This document shows, piece after piece, positions 1,848 to 30,623 of a DNA stretch of 64,000 nt; within the stretch, counting starts at the first letter, position 1, and the number at the start of each line of letters is the position of its first letter. The translations under genes were made by a program, and so were the position numbers. The stretch is taken from positions 1 to 64,000 of the forward strand of contig JAJEAC010000021.1 of NCBI GenBank assembly GCA_022824315.1. Reading direction: 5' to 3'. The notes beneath the pieces were generated by a model. It saw only the letters and a list, made by a program, of their open reading frames with translations. It was not told the origin of the DNA and did no database searches. This stretch comes from Silicimonas sp. (GTDB lineage: Bacteria > Pseudomonadota > Alphaproteobacteria > Rhodobacterales > Rhodobacteraceae).

Positions 1848-2561
1848 CTATGGGCCGCGTTCCGCCCGAAACCCCGTCGCCACAACGTATTTCTCTCGCG
1901 AATCGGCGCGGCTCGCCGGCGGCTTCATGTTGATGACCTTGCCAAATTTCCGCTTGAGCACGACCTGAAGGCTGGAATCGGCCCCGCCTGCCAATACCTT
2001 GGCGACAAAGGTTCCGCCTTCGTCGAGCACGTCGAAGGCAAGTTCGGCCGCCGCCTCGCAGAGCGCCATGATCCTCACGTGGTCGGTCTGCCTGTGTCCG
2101 GATGAATTCGCCGCCATGTCCGACATCACGACGTCGGCCTTGCCGTCGAGCCAGTCCCGGATGAGGTCATCCGCGCCATCGGACAGTAAGTCCAGCACGT
2201 GGATTTCCGCTCCCGGAACCGGGTCGACCTGCTTCAGGTCTATGCCGATGACTCGCCCGGCCGCCTTGCCGCGCTGCTCGCCGAGCGCATTCACGCGCCT
2301 TGCCGCGACCTGGCACCAGCCACCCGGGGCGGACCCGAGGTCCAGCACCCGCGCGCCAGGCGTCAGGAACCGGTGCTTGTCGTCGATTTCGATGAGCTTG
2401 TAGGCCGCCCGCCCCCGGTAGCCCTCGGCCTTCGCGCGGCGCACGTACGGGTCGTTCAGTTGCCGTTCAAGCCAGCGGGTGGAGGACAGCTTCCGTCGCC
2501 GTGCCGTTGTGACGCGCACTTTCAGGTCGCGTTCCGCTCGTCCGCTCGTCTGCCGTGCCAT
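1848..2561 (-). CDS. rlmE: 23S rRNA (uridine-2'-O)-methyltransferase RlmE
   Basis: RlmE (FtsJ/RrmJ) methylates the ribose of U2552 in the A loop of 23S rRNA late in 50S assembly. The 237-residue product shows the SAM-binding motif [11 protein letters not shown] and the catalytic K-D-K-E tetrad in context: Lys in RGRAAYKL, Asp in [11 protein letters not shown], Lys in FVAKVLAGG and Glu in [11 protein letters not shown]. The ATG at 2561 was preferred over an in-frame GTG nine bases upstream. The usual ppx/gppA-type neighbour of alphaproteobacteria is absent on both sides. Confidence 0.95.
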
Positions 2562-2727
2562 GGGCCTCACTGAACCAATGCGTGCCGGAATTGCAAGGCG
2601 CGGCGTTCGGAATGGCCGCCTGCCTCGGAATCCGCCGGTCGCCGATGCTTCGCGGAAGTTCGGTGCATTCTCATGCTGTGTTCGTGCAAACCGGCTAGTA
2701 AGTCCAGACGACGGGGAACCGTGTGGC

Positions 2728-3330
2728 TCAGACCTGTCCGAGCACTTCTCTCACGTAGCGCCGGGTTTCGCGGTACGGAGGAACTTCGCCAAATTTCCTC
2801 ACCGCGTTAGGTCCGGCATTATAGGCGGCAACCGCCAGCCGCCATGACCCGAAGACGCGAAACTGTTCGGACAGGTAGCGTGCGCCGCCCTCAAGGTTCT
2901 GAACCGGATCGCGGGGGTTGATGCCAAGAGACTTGGCGGTTGCAGGCATGAGCTGCGTCAATCCGATGGCGCCTCGGCTCGAACGGGCCTCCGCATCCCA
3001 TCTGGACTCTTTCATGATGAGCCGTAGGAACACGCCTTCCGGGATTTCGTAGCGCCACGCCAAATCGCAAGCGACATTCAGAAATTGCGGAGAATCCGCG
3101 ACGGGCTTCCGTCTCAGAGCCGTCACTTCCAAGGTCTCGGATGTGCATGCGTTCCGAAGTCTCGGTCGAAGCGAACTGATAAGCTTCGGAGCAACGGCAT
3201 CCAAAGTCGCAACCTCGCTTTGGGATAGCTCCGCCTTGCCCTCCGACACCGGCGTTTCCGCTGCGACGGGGCATGCCAAAGCCAGACACGAAAAAAGGAC
3301 TGCTTTACTTATGCAGGCAGGTCGATGCAA
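2728..3330 (-). CDS. lytic transglycosylase (SLT domain)
   Basis: A periplasmic lytic transglycosylase that would cleave the MurNAc-GlcNAc bond with 1,6-anhydro product. The C-terminal half has the SLT fold signature: catalytic Glu in [12 protein letters not shown], then [13 protein letters not shown] and [10 protein letters not shown] signal peptide ([18 protein letters not shown]) is present. I chose a TTG start at 3330 because it sits six bases after a GGGGGGA stretch and puts the signal peptide at the N-terminus; an in-frame ATG at 3405 has no ribosome-binding site and adds unlikely residues. About 200 residues. The SDR gene is divergent, starting 110 bases away. Confidence 0.85.
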
Positions 3331-3439
3331 GAAATCCCCCCAAGGGTTCCATGCCGTGAGGTCGCACCATAGCCTTGGGGCCTGAGACGGGCAACGGGTT
3401 GGCATTGACGATCGAAAATGCTGTGGCAAAAGGGTCACA

Positions 3440-4084
3440 ATGAACAAAGTCGCCATTGTAACCGGAGCCTCGCGCGGGCTTGGGGCCGCACTTGCCGAGG
3501 CGTTGGCCAAAGACCATCATGTCATAGCCATGGCACGAACGGCAGGCGGTCTCGAAGACCTTGATGACCGCATCCGGGCAGCCGGCGGAACCGCGACGCT
3601 CGTGCCCGTCGACCTGATCGATTCCGATGCCTGTGCGTCAGTGTGTCGCAGCATTCGGGAGCGATGGGGGCACGCCGATCTTTGGGTGCATGCGGCAATC
3701 CATGTCGCGCCACTGGCACCCGCCGCACATCTTGATCCCAAAGACCTGGCGAAGTCCCTAGCAACCAACGTCACTGCAACTGCCACGCTGATCGCTTGTG
3801 TGGCTCCGCTTCTCGAGGCCGCCGAAGGCGGCACGGCGGTTTTCTTCGACGATCCCCGTGCGGGCGAGCGGTTCTTCTCCGCATATGGCGCGACGAAGGC
3901 GGCCCAGGTCTCGATTGCCAGATGCTGGGCTGCGGAAACCGTGCGCACAGGGCCGCGCGTGATGATTCTCTCGCCACCGCCCATGCCGACCGCGACCCGG
4001 GCGAGGTTCTTCCCGGGCGAGAACAAGAGCGCCTTGACCTCGCCCGGTGCCGCTGCGCGCAGCATCCTGGCTGCCATCGGCTGA
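3440..4084 (+). CDS. SDR family NAD(P)-dependent oxidoreductase
   Basis: A 214-residue short-chain dehydrogenase/reductase. The cofactor motif TGASRGLG lies at residues 9-16 and the catalytic pair YGATK (YxxxK) near residue 155. An AIHVAP segment stands where the usual NNAG would be. Basic Arg residues after the first glycine motif suggest NADP(H). AAAGGG lies just before the ATG. The substrate cannot be told; the SurE gene is 197 bases downstream. Confidence 0.85.
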   Translation: MNKVAIVTGASRGLGAALAEALAKDHHVIAMARTAGGLEDLDDRIRAAGGTATLVPVDLIDSDACASVCRSIRERWGHADLWVHAAIHVAPLAPAAHLDPKDLAKSLATNVTATATLIACVAPLLEAAEGGTAVFFDDPRAGERFFSAYGATKAAQVSIARCWAAETVRTGPRVMILSPPPMPTATRARFFPGENKSALTSPGAAARSILAAIG

Positions 4085-27972: not shown

Positions 27973-28455
27973 ATGACACAGAAAATGAGCGTCCAAGGCG
28001 ACAGGCAACGCCCGCTCAGGCTTTCCAACGGCGGCAAACGAGGGGTTCGAACCCAGTTTGGTGCATTGTGCTGGCGGCGACGCGGCGACGAAATACAGGT
28101 GCTTCTTGTGACGTCACGGCGCCGGAAGCGGTGGATCATTCCGAAGGGCTGGCCACAGGATCACGTCACGCCGATGAAGACCGCCGTGACGGAAGCGTGG
28201 GAAGAGGCCGGCGTAGAGGGCAAGGCAAAGGCGACATGCCTCGGAATCTTCAGCTACAACAAGATCGTCTCGGCGAATCAGGTCGCACCCTGCGTGGTCG
28301 CCATCTTCCCCATGCGCGTCAAGAAACTGCGCTCGGACTTCCCCGAAGCATCCCAGCGGAAGCGGAAGTGGTTTTCGCTGGCCAAGGCGGCAACGCAAGT
28401 GAGCGAACCCGAACTGGCGGCGATCATAAAGCGCTTCGATCCCGCGAACGTGTGA
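27973..28455 (+). CDS. Nudix hydrolase (diphosphoinositol/diadenosine polyphosphate type)
   Basis: A 160-residue Nudix protein. The box reads GWPQDHVTPMKTAVTEAWEE followed by AGV: the EExG part is intact, but the first conserved Glu and the Arg of REUxEE are not in place, as in a subgroup resembling the DIPP/APF6 type. It is expected to hydrolyse a nucleoside diphosphate linked to X, with substrate unknown. A DUF1178 gene on the same strand lies beyond the IscB insertion and may once have been its direct neighbour. Confidence 0.8.
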   Translation: MTQKMSVQGDRQRPLRLSNGGKRGVRTQFGALCWRRRGDEIQVLLVTSRRRKRWIIPKGWPQDHVTPMKTAVTEAWEEAGVEGKAKATCLGIFSYNKIVSANQVAPCVVAIFPMRVKKLRSDFPEASQRKRKWFSLAKAATQVSEPELAAIIKRFDPANV

Positions 28456-28539
28456 TCGGGCTCTTGCATTGCCAATCGTGCCCGGCAAGCGTAGCAAGAT
28501 TGACGCGGTAAGAAGATTCCGCCAGCGACCCCTCCCTGA

Positions 28540-28812
28540 AGGGAAGGGCTTGAGGGGCGGACGCCCCGAGGGCCCATGCTGACCAGCACGAGAAAGGGGA
28601 CGATCATCCGATCTGCCTTGCACCATACGTTCAAGACCGACCCTGGGATGCTTCCTCAGTTCCAGGCACTCGAAGGTTCGCCTGCAGACACGCCGGGTCA
28701 GGCACGAAACGGGGTGAATCCAGACGCGGATGTGCAAGATGTGCGAGCGGAGCCCGGCTCCGGCCGGCGTCACCGGAGAAGCTCGCGCGACTCCGAGAGC
28801 GGCGTAAGCCGC
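28540..28812 (+). ncRNA. probable omega RNA of the IscB locus
   Basis: IscB guide RNAs are encoded just 5' of, and partly overlapping, the nuclease gene. This stretch has dense complementarity: GGGGCG/CGCCCC near 28554-28570, CGAA/TTCG near 28672, CCGG repeats around 28760-28775 and a GTAA-capped hairpin GCGGC-GTAA-GCCGC at 28799-28812 directly at the coding start. The guide would sit at the 5' end. Boundaries are guesses; no covariance model was run. Confidence 0.4.
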
Positions 28813-30174
28813 GTCTTCGTCCTCGACAGGCGGGGCGACCCGCTGATGCCGTGCCATCCGGCGCGGGCGAGGACGCTTCTGAAGAAGGGGCGCGCCGTCG
28901 CGGCGAGCCTCCGTCCCTTCAGCATACGGCTCCGGGACAGGACCGGAGGGGGGACGCAGCCCCTGGACCTGAAGATGGACCCGGGGTCGAGGACGACGGG
29001 CATGGCGCTCGTCCGGAATGACGGCGAGGTCCTGTCCCTTGCCGAGATTGGGCACAGGGGAGAGCGGGTCCGGAAGTCGATGCCGCAACGGGCCAATTAT
29101 CGGCGGCGGCGGCGCTCGGCGAACCTGAGATACCGGAAGGAGCGGTTCCTGAACCGGCGTTCCGGGAGACGGCTCCCGTCCTCGCTGCAGTCGCGGGTGG
29201 ACAACGTGCTGTCCTGGACGGAACGGTTCAGGAGACTTGCGCCGGTGACCGGGATCCGGTGCGAGACGGTGCGCTTCGACACGCAGGCGCCGGAGAGTCC
29301 CGGCATCGAGGGCGCGGAGTACCAGCAGGGAACGCTCGCCGGGTACGAGGTCCGGGCGTATCTGCTCGAGAAATGGGGACGCAAATGCGCCTACTGCGGC
29401 TCCGCGGGGACGCCGCTCCAGATTGATCACGTGCGACCGAAGGCCCGGGGCGGGTCCGACCGGGTCTCCAACCTGACGCTCGCCTGCCCCTCCTGCAACC
29501 GGGCCAAGGGATCGCGGACGGTGGAGAGCTTCCTGGCCAGGCGGCCCGGACGGCTGCGCCGAGGTCTCGACGGGGCCAAGGCGCCGCTTCGCGACGCCTC
29601 CGCGGTCAACGCCTCCGGCCGCGTCCTGTTCGAGGGGCTGGAGCGGACCGGCCTTCCCGTCTCCGGCCACTCTGGAGGGCGGACGAAGTTCAACCGGGCG
29701 CGGCTGGGGATCCCCAAGTCGCACGCGCTCGACGCGGCCTGCGTGGGGGAGACGCCCGCGCTGAAGGGCTGGGACCAGCCCGTGCTCGGGATCAGGGCCA
29801 TGGGCCGGGGATCGTACTCGCGCACGCGTGCGGACCGGTCCGGCTTCCCGGTCGGCTACCTGATGGCGGGGAAGTCCGTCCGGGGCTTCCGGACGGGGGA
29901 CATCGTGTGCGCGGTCGTTCCGTCGGGCAGGAAGCGGGGCGTCCATTCGGGCCGCGTCGCGGTTCGGGCCTCGGGATCGTTCAACGTCCAGACGGCCGGC
30001 GGCACCGTCTTGGGCGATTCCCACCGGCATTGCCGCATCGTCCAGCGCGGCGACGGGTACGGATACCGCCTCGACACGACACGGCAGAAGGAGACGGCGA
30101 CGATGCACGGAACACGAGACCCCGCATTCCTCCACGCCCTGAAGGACGGGGTTTCCTGCGGGGTGGACAGATGA
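28741..30174 (+). CDS. iscB: IscB, RuvC-HNH OMEGA nuclease
   Basis: IscB is the RNA-guided ancestor of Cas9, made by IS200/IS605-superfamily elements. All parts are present: the PLMP domain (RVFVLDRRGDPLMPCHPARA), RuvC-I with Asp in LDLKMDPGSRTTGMALV, an Arg-rich bridge helix (RANYRRRRRSANLRYRKERF), RuvC-II with Glu in CETVRFDTQ followed by EYQQGTLAGYEVRAYLLEKW, the HNH domain (CAYCGSAGTPLQIDHVRPKA, then NLTLACPSCNRAKG) and RuvC-III (GIPKSHALDAACVG), then a C-terminal target-interaction domain. The chain appears intact. I used the nearest start (GTG) before the PLMP domain; the frame is open to 28576. The stop overlaps the next ATG by three bases. No TnpA gene is near. Confidence 0.9.
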   Translation: MRAEPGSGRRHRRSSRDSESGVSRVFVLDRRGDPLMPCHPARARTLLKKGRAVAASLRPFSIRLRDRTGGGTQPLDLKMDPGSRTTGMALVRNDGEVLSLAEIGHRGERVRKSMPQRANYRRRRRSANLRYRKERFLNRRSGRRLPSSLQSRVDNVLSWTERFRRLAPVTGIRCETVRFDTQAPESPGIEGAEYQQGTLAGYEVRAYLLEKWGRKCAYCGSAGTPLQIDHVRPKARGGSDRVSNLTLACPSCNRAKGSRTVESFLARRPGRLRRGLDGAKAPLRDASAVNASGRVLFEGLERTGLPVSGHSGGRTKFNRARLGIPKSHALDAACVGETPALKGWDQPVLGIRAMGRGSYSRTRADRSGFPVGYLMAGKSVRGFRTGDIVCAVVPSGRKRGVHSGRVAVRASGSFNVQTAGGTVLGDSHRHCRIVQRGDGYGYRLDTTRQKETATMHGTRDPAFLHALKDGVSCGVDR

Positions 30175-30623
30175 TCCGGTTCGCGCTCAAATGCGCCAAT
30201 GGCCACGGCTTCGAGAGCTGGTTTGCCTCGAGCGAGAAGTTCACGGAACTCGTGTCGGCTGGTCATGTGACATGTCCAGAATGTGACAGTACCAGCGTCT
30301 CCAAGGAGCTGATGGCGCCGCCGGTGCGTTCCTCCCGCAAGAGGGCAGCCAAGGGAGAGGCACGTGACGATACGTCGAAATCCATGGCGACGGCGACTGA
30401 CCCTGAAATTGCCGACGCGATCCGCAAGTTGAAGGCGCATGTCGAGGAGAATTCGGACTATGTAGGCGATCGTTTCGTGAAGGAAGCGCGTGCGATGCAT
30501 GAGGGCACGGTGCCGCAACGGTCGATTCACGGAGAGGCGCGTTCAGACGAGGCCCGGAAACTGATCGAGGACGGAGTGCCGGCACTGCCCTTGCCGTTCA
30601 TCCCGAGACAGAAGACCAACTGA
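30171..30623 (+). CDS. DUF1178 family protein
   Basis: A 150-residue protein with the DUF1178 signature: MIRFALKCANGHGFESWFAS with CxxGH, and CPECDSTSVSKELMAPPV with a second Cys pair, so it probably binds zinc. The C-terminal half is charged and helical (FVKEARAMHEGTVPQRSIHG). The function is not known in the family. The ATG lies inside the IscB stop, so this gene now depends on transcription or translation through iscB. Confidence 0.88.
   Translation: MIRFALKCANGHGFESWFASSEKFTELVSAGHVTCPECDSTSVSKELMAPPVRSSRKRAAKGEARDDTSKSMATATDPEIADAIRKLKAHVEENSDYVGDRFVKEARAMHEGTVPQRSIHGEARSDEARKLIEDGVPALPLPFIPRQKTN

What the first reader, a model, noticed from the sequence alone, without database searches (positions are those of the whole stretch)
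28540..30174. Intact IscB with a candidate omega RNA inside a housekeeping gene pair
IscB keeps all catalytic motifs (RuvC D-E-D-type set, HNH H-N-H) in one open frame and starts next to a structured stretch with a GTAA-capped hairpin at the coding start. It lies between a Nudix gene and a DUF1178 gene with the IscB stop inside the DUF1178 ATG, so the insertion exactly preserved the downstream start. No TnpA is near, so it is non-autonomous or domesticated.
Basis: partly seen in the sequence, partly recalled or inferred. Interest (0 to 1): 0.6.

Follow-up and report, generated by a model that had tools for sequence, protein, structure and literature searches.

The report
RNA-guided mobile element at start codons
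This is an intact mobile DNA element with its own RNA-guided cutting enzyme (IscB, a relative of Cas9), wedged exactly between a gene's ribosome-binding site and its start codon; its relatives sit directly before the start codons of dozens of genes in this group of bacteria.

Summary
The element is 28521-30170 (1650 bp): an omega RNA (Rfam HEARO, 69 bits, E 1e-13, below Rfam's curated 83) extended by a GNRA hairpin at 28799-28812, an intact IscB (NCBIfam IscB, 393 bits, cut-off 175) and a right-end hairpin. Seven genus relatives have the empty DUF1178 junction. ATGA (30171-30174) is DUF1178 start, overlaps the IscB stop and is the putative TAM. It is one of a family. A right-end model without ATGA gave 87 matches in 8 genus genomes (capped scoring). 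Of the 82 best, 71 are followed by ATGA; they fall into 46 sites, 40 with ATGA, and 35 of those open an ORF that I count as a gene (crude null 27%, P about 2e-15). Of 30 HEARO loci in the genus, 20 lack IscB; several are inherited at orthologous sites before transporter-protein genes. No Y1 TnpA was found in this genome. So it is a genuine, probably active IscB element, absent from this site in the relatives examined and not domesticated. IscB-less copies mostly drift like the DNA around them, so I do not claim a regulatory role. The surprise is start-codon lodging in a lineage with almost no visible TnpA.

The parts
28521..30170 (+). whole IscB/omega-RNA element, 1650 bp, inserted without target duplication between ...AAGATTCC and ATGATCC
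   Evidence: empty junction in 7 genus relatives, L091-L096 and L098
28505..28520 (+). presumed guide: host sequence just left of the element, read into the 5' end of the omega RNA; holds the displaced Shine-Dalgarno (here AAGAAGA at 28510-28516; relatives AAGGAGA 3 of 7, AGGGAGA 2, AAGGAGG 1, AAGGGGG 1)
   Evidence: position relative to HEARO 5' end and relatives; guide length is inferred
28521..28812 (+). omega RNA scaffold: HEARO match 28521-28758 plus GNRA hairpin 28799-28812
28741..30174 (+). IscB coding sequence from the GTG shared with three homologues (longest ORF 28576-30174; conserved protein from 28816)
30105..30170 (+). right end (RE): hairpin region shared by the copies, here also the last IscB codons; ends GGGGTGGACAG with some anti-Shine-Dalgarno pairing
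30171..30174 (+). ATGA: putative TAM, DUF1178 start codon, overlapping the IscB stop TGA
30171..30623 (+). DUF1178 gene, host gene at the insertion site
   Evidence: PF06676 E 1.7e-51
27973..28455 (+). NUDIX gene upstream, host
   Evidence: PF00293 E 3e-08

Best explanation
It is an intact IscB/omega-RNA (HEARO-type, ISC) mobile element that inserted between the Shine-Dalgarno sequence and the start codon of the DUF1178 gene. Shown by sequence: exact ends, no target duplication, ATGA at the right border, an omega RNA fold, an IscB with its catalytic motifs, a multi-copy family in the genus whose right ends mostly abut the ATGA of a gene start, and IscB-less copies that keep the RNA and are inherited at orthologous sites. 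Inferred from known IscB biology: transcription runs into the left end, so the RNA carries the last 13-16 host bases as its guide. IscB with this RNA cuts any copy of the site that still reads [guide]ATGA, meaning an allele without the element, and so drives or retains the element, while the occupied site is safe because the guide is no longer followed by ATGA. One IscB could use the RNAs of the IscB-less copies in trans. DUF1178 is probably translated by reinitiation after IscB (TGA/ATG overlap) and/or from the GGGGTGG sequence of the right end.
For: IscB family. Omega RNA. Exact empty sites at three loci: DUF1178, 7 relatives; sugar-binding-protein gene, G003 and G007; 3-hydroxyacyl-CoA dehydrogenase gene, G000, G004, G005 and G006, left flank identical over 20/20 to the filled alleles of G001 and G007. 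Family and ATGA rule. 82 RE matches: 71 ATGA, 46 distinct sites, 40 with ATGA, 35 of 40 opening an ORF counted as a gene. Of 34 such ORFs besides DUF1178, 32 hit Pfam at E <= 1e-3, 30 of them above the curated cut-off. Left flanks are more Shine-Dalgarno-like than random 20-mers (p 7e-4, n=23, one per site).
Against: HEARO score is under Rfam's curated cut-off in every copy. No expression or cleavage data. The window's 16-base guide has 2 mismatches to six relatives' empty sites and 3 to the seventh, so it may no longer cut them well. Not every site has a Shine-Dalgarno in the left flank (for example imuB, L055, L068), and a quarter of random 20-mers pair as well as the median flank. No Y1 TnpA in the genome, so how the element moved is open; MAG assemblies can lose repeats. 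The REs that trained the model all came from ATGA-bordered copies; 23 of the 24 are among the 82, and of the other 59, 48 are ATGA. The gene-start count was labelled by hand.
Confidence: 0.82

Rival explanations
1. Domesticated regulator: the element and its IscB-less relatives act as a 5' leader or guide-RNA switch for the downstream genes, much as nuclease-dead TnpB (TldR) regulates genes.
For: IscB-less copies are inherited at orthologous sites upstream of five different solute-binding-protein genes. In the sugar-binding group 20/20 bases of the left flank are identical across four species. Omega-RNA pairs are 95% kept in 19 IscB-less copies, 12 pairs changed on both sides, 0/500 shuffles. 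Within three orthologous groups paired columns vary less than unpaired ones (17/118 v 29/133, 24/118 v 42/133, 43/118 v 62/133). Two groups vary far less than third codon positions (2 v 18%, 4 v 14%).
Against: The window copy is absent from relatives and its IscB is not nuclease-dead by motif. In the four other groups the element varies 16, 27, 15 and 39% against 25, 29, 10 and 40% at third codon positions of the gene. Within groups, keeping of pairs is not clearly above a null (p 0.09, 0.71, 0.03). The guide drifts in the peptide-binding group.
Confidence: 0.1
2. Start-codon bias by survival: insertions fall on any ATGA, but those at gene starts persist, because the gene then depends on the right end for translation while other relics are deleted.
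For: Several start-codon copies are old and inherited.
Against: The bias is also seen in the presumably younger iscB-type copies of G001 and G007, many of which break contigs: of 18 picked by a right-end motif (mean right-end identity 88%, range 70-100%), 17 are followed by ATGA and 15 precede a gene start (exceptions L167, L168, L181). Their youth is inferred, not dated.
Confidence: 0.25
3. Dead relic: IscB or its RNA has lost function and the frame is open by chance in G+C-rich DNA.
For: Another copy in the same genome (C92) has stops and deletions; the displaced Shine-Dalgarno has changed.
Against: 452 residues without a stop, catalytic positions shared with three homologues at 72-78% identity, strong family scores.
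Confidence: 0.08

Closest known systems
IscB (NCBIfam NF040563; OgeuIscB, OrufIscB, TbaIscB solved structures)
   Same: PLMP region, RuvC split by arginine-rich stretch and HNH, catalytic residues, C-terminal region; omega RNA directly upstream in the same direction
   Different: 452-477 aa; putative TAM ATGA, not the NTAAA and NWRGNA-type motifs in passages of PMC13180657
HEARO RNA element (Rfam RF02033)
   Same: full-length match 1-211 of 211; RNA plus HNH ORF as one mobile unit; ATGA or GTGA at the right border, as I recall from Weinberg 2009 (paper not held)
   Different: 69 bits, under the curated 83; a GNRA hairpin 3' of the Rfam model; 20 of 30 HEARO loci tabulated in the genus have lost the ORF, 3 have it, 7 are unresolved
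Standalone omega RNAs (recalled from Altae-Tran 2021; paper not held)
   Same: omega RNAs without a neighbouring IscB in a genome that holds an IscB elsewhere
   Different: here they are flanked by both element ends, sit at gene starts and are inherited between species, also in genomes (G004-G006) where only partial IscB matches were found
TldR, nuclease-dead TnpB regulators (PMC13418256, search listing and start of abstract only)
   Same: exapted guide RNA controlling host genes is the analogy considered
   Different: no nuclease-dead protein here, and selection on the IscB-less RNAs is weak or unproven

Membership tests
IscB | curated family score | tested here: met
   NF040563 393.5 bits, cut-off 175
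IscB | RuvC and HNH catalytic residues present | tested here: met
   alignments to PDB IscBs and three homologues; residue roles recalled
IscB | RNA-guided DNA cleavage | not testable with these tools
   needs biochemistry
HEARO / omega RNA | covariance-model match at the curated score | tested here: inconclusive
   E 1.3e-13 genome-wide and full model length, but 69.2 bits is below the gathering 83
HEARO / omega RNA | conserved pairing with compensatory changes | tested here: met
   59 pairs, 13 with both sides changed in 21 copies; 19 IscB-less copies: 12 pairs
HEARO / omega RNA | ATGA or GTGA at the 3' border (recalled) | tested here: met
   71 ATGA and 2 GTGA of 82
IS200/IS605-like mobile element | precise insertion without target duplication | tested here: met
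   three loci with empty alleles
IS200/IS605-like mobile element | Y1 TnpA transposase in the element or genome | tested here: not met
   0 in G000; 2 of 8 genus genomes (G002, G003) have short matches that reach Pfam's cut-off; HEARO nucleases are said to be seldom next to TnpA (PMC9755519, passages)
TldR-like domesticated regulator | nuclease-dead effector | tested here: not met
   IscB motifs intact
TldR-like domesticated regulator | selection on the standalone RNA | tested here: inconclusive
   element variation near third-position rate in four groups, lower in two; pair-keeping p 0.09, 0.71, 0.03, paired columns vary less

The most novel reading that the evidence does not exclude
A start-codon specialist: because each guide is copied from a Shine-Dalgarno region and the TAM is ATGA, every guide-plus-TAM resembles many other gene starts. 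IscB, fed by a pool of standalone omega RNAs, may cut and help the element colonise new translation starts without TnpA, so that RNA guidance and not a transposase sets where the family goes.
Probability: 0.1. Interest if true: 0.85.

Novelty: new member of a known kind. Interest (0 to 1): 0.48.

Why it matters
IscB is the likely ancestor of Cas9, and how TnpA-less IscB elements spread is, as far as I know, open. Here is a genus-wide set of dozens of insertions, some apparently young, some shared, with exact empty alleles at three sites, most at one functional position: right before a start codon. That makes target choice, use of omega RNAs in trans and the cost to host translation directly testable. 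For the window itself the finding is a normal, well-preserved IscB element.

Tried and rejected
Leader peptide: the frame ending in the TGA of ATGA is open through many IscB-less copies, but substitutions show no codon-position bias, so it is not coding. Regulon of binding-protein genes: the orthologous copies are real, but they mostly evolve like flanking DNA and pair-keeping within groups is weak. Homing with co-conversion of flanks: in 8 species pairs identity is flat or follows the flanks, pointing to vertical inheritance. Generality outside the genus: I gave 37 of the 69 viral-contig loci (duplicates and short or distant ones left out) plus 7 loci; one ran off its contig. Of 43 distinct IscBs, 10 have the stop overlapping a possible start with an ORF of 60 aa or more, two of the ten being Boseongicola; without a control this is inconclusive. 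Candidates: L123 Verrucomicrobiota ATGA; L127 Planomonospora, GTGA just after a CTGAAGG hairpin. MFE z-score is uninformative in this G+C-rich DNA. Literature: the listings showed nothing on IscB at start codons that I could see; the two key papers (Weinberg 2009, Altae-Tran 2021) are not held, so I cannot say that it is unpublished.

Full report
1. Observation. The IscB frame, its two neighbours and the stop/start overlap are as described. IscB scores 393.5 bits against NF040563 (cut-off 175) and aligns to solved IscBs over the RuvC and HNH motifs. Three homologues from the genus share the catalytic positions at 72-78% identity. A default Rfam scan is empty, but a scan of the 2 kb region finds HEARO, full model length, 28521-28758, 69.2 bits, E 2.3e-13; genome-wide E 1.3e-13. 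It is below Rfam's curated 83 bits; so are all HEARO matches in the genus. The GTAA hairpin (28799-28812) lies beyond the Rfam model; 11 of 22 other copies scanned, IscB-less ones included, keep it fully paired at the same offset with GTAA, GTGA or GCAA loops, and 11 do not. It probably belongs to the RNA.

2. Ends. Seven genus relatives (L091-L096, L098) have an uninterrupted junction that reads straight into ATGATCCGG. In six the nudix sequence lies upstream in the aligned stretch; in L092, one of two DUF1178 copies of G006, only about 80 bases next to the gene match. The element is therefore exactly 28521-30170, with no duplication and no lost base, and separates the Shine-Dalgarno sequence from the start codon. 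The window reads AAGAAGA where relatives read AAGGAGA (3 of 7), AGGGAGA (2), AAGGAGG (1) or AAGGGGG (1); over 16 bases the window flank has 2 mismatches to six relatives and 3 to one. Two further sites show empty alleles: the sugar-binding-protein gene in G003 and G007, and the 3-hydroxyacyl-CoA dehydrogenase gene in G000, G004, G005 and G006, with a left flank identical over 20 bases to the filled alleles of G001 and G007. A fifth empty allele, in G002, has 3 mismatches and ATGG instead of ATGA.

3. A family. In its own genome the element has relatives on more than ten other contigs. All eight genus genomes have HEARO matches. Public records of three of them are named Boseongicola sp.. Of 30 HEARO loci that I tabulated, 20 have a right end 355-450 bases away and so no IscB, 3 are IscB-sized, 7 are unresolved. 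Full-length IscB occurs in G000, G001, G003 and G007; G004, G005, G006 and the 65%-complete G002 gave only partial matches. In the wider family HEARO is rare: 4 of 248 genomes drawn, 3 of 247 genera (stricter filters). Y1 TnpA is absent from G000; G002 and G003 have short matches at or above Pfam's cut-off.

4. The start-codon rule. A right-end model built without ATGA (24 copies) gives 87 matches at E <= 0.01 in eight genomes; only 150 of 2306-3718 first-look candidates per genome were scored, so this is a lower bound, and one training copy (L067, also before an ATGA that opens a 387-codon frame) is missing from it. I fetched the 82 at E <= 1e-3. The next four bases are ATGA in 71, GTGA in 2, other in 9; one of the nine (L225) is a match cut short that, read on, also reaches ATGA. 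The training copies were all ATGA-bordered; leaving out the 23 of them among the 82, 48 of 59 are ATGA. Grouped by hand into orthologous sites there are 46 sites, 40 with ATGA, and in 35 of 40 the ATGA opens an ORF I count as a gene. Of 34 checked, 32 hit Pfam, 30 above the curated cut-off; L187 and L201 hit nothing; DUF1178 is the 35th. Not starts: L167, L168, L195 (contig edge), the L199 group and the weak L236. The hisE site (8 of 8 genomes) has only the right end and no recognised omega RNA and may be an ancient remnant; leaving it out gives 34 of 39. In the window, 428 ATGA occur on both strands, of which a crude gene call makes 12-18 gene starts and 48 intergenic. Even if only starts and intergenic sites tolerate insertion the chance rate is about 27% and P about 2e-15.

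5. What the copies do. IscB-less copies keep the RNA fold: 95% of cells paired and 12 pairs changed on both sides in 19 copies. Within three orthologous groups paired columns vary less than unpaired ones, but keeping of pairs is at best weakly above a null (p 0.09, 0.71, 0.03). In four groups the element varies 16, 27, 15 and 39% against 25, 29, 10 and 40% at third codon positions of the gene behind it; in two it varies much less (2 v 18%, 4 v 14%), unexplained. Identity across element and flanks is flat or follows the flanks in 8 species pairs. I read them as inherited insertions that still fold, not as proven regulators. Left flanks (n=23) pair with the anti-Shine-Dalgarno better than random (p 7e-4), but a few do not pair at all; right ends of the binding-protein type hardly pair, iscB-type right ends do somewhat (window dG -6.6). 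How the genes without a nearby Shine-Dalgarno are translated is open.

6. Mechanism. By established IscB biology (recalled; 13-15 nt effective guides for OrufIscB from passages of PMC13180657) the guide would be the host sequence left of the element and the TAM the ATGA to its right. An allele without the element is then the target. TnpB has been reported to act as a gene drive of this kind in plasmids (PMC11870625, passages). The dehydrogenase site is the cleanest case: the guide of G001 and G007 matches the empty alleles of four relatives over 20 bases followed by ATGA. None of this was tested at the bench.

7. Verdict. A genuine, probably active, IscB/HEARO element of a known kind. Of more interest is the genus-wide family at start codons without a visible transposase. 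Whether this border rule is general for HEARO could not be settled here.

Noticed in passing
L010/L048/L049/L059, L011/L046/L051-L053/L063, L047/L056, L017/L054/L197/L208/L215, L012/L060/L177: IscB-less copies of one right-end type precede five different ABC or TAXI-type solute-binding-protein genes, inherited across species; why this gene class is unexplained.
   Followed up: partly
L211, L212, L217, L219, L222, L223, L230, L233: A right-end-like hairpin directly before hisE (ATGA) in all 8 genus genomes, without a recognised omega RNA upstream.
   Followed up: partly
L164, L178, L185, L187 (G007) and L166, L172, L180, L181 (G001): iscB-type right ends at or near contig edges, four of G007 at the same offset (121-186): likely recent multi-copy spread that breaks the assemblies, in genomes without a Y1 TnpA match.
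   Followed up: partly
L012/L060/L177 and L044/L045: Element and 60 bases of left flank nearly identical between species although the downstream gene differs at 14-18% of third codon positions.
   Followed up: partly
L321 (G002), dehydrogenase gene: An empty allele whose start reads ATGG instead of ATGA, so it lacks the putative TAM.
   Followed up: no
L226, L232, L235: An apparently orthologous element in three genomes followed by GTGA or GTAA and no long ORF.
   Followed up: no
L250 (G021, another genus of the family): A lone HEARO match followed, as read by eye, by a decayed IscB-like sequence.
   Followed up: no
L120, L121, 12 bases before the conserved IscB start: In two relatives the GNRA loop of the terminal RNA hairpin reads GTGA and holds an in-frame GTG, a possible IscB start codon inside the RNA.
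   Followed up: no
L127:4604-4671: Planomonospora IscB fragment followed by a CTGAAGG hairpin and then GTGA opening a 246-aa ORF: a similar border layout in another phylum.
   Followed up: partly
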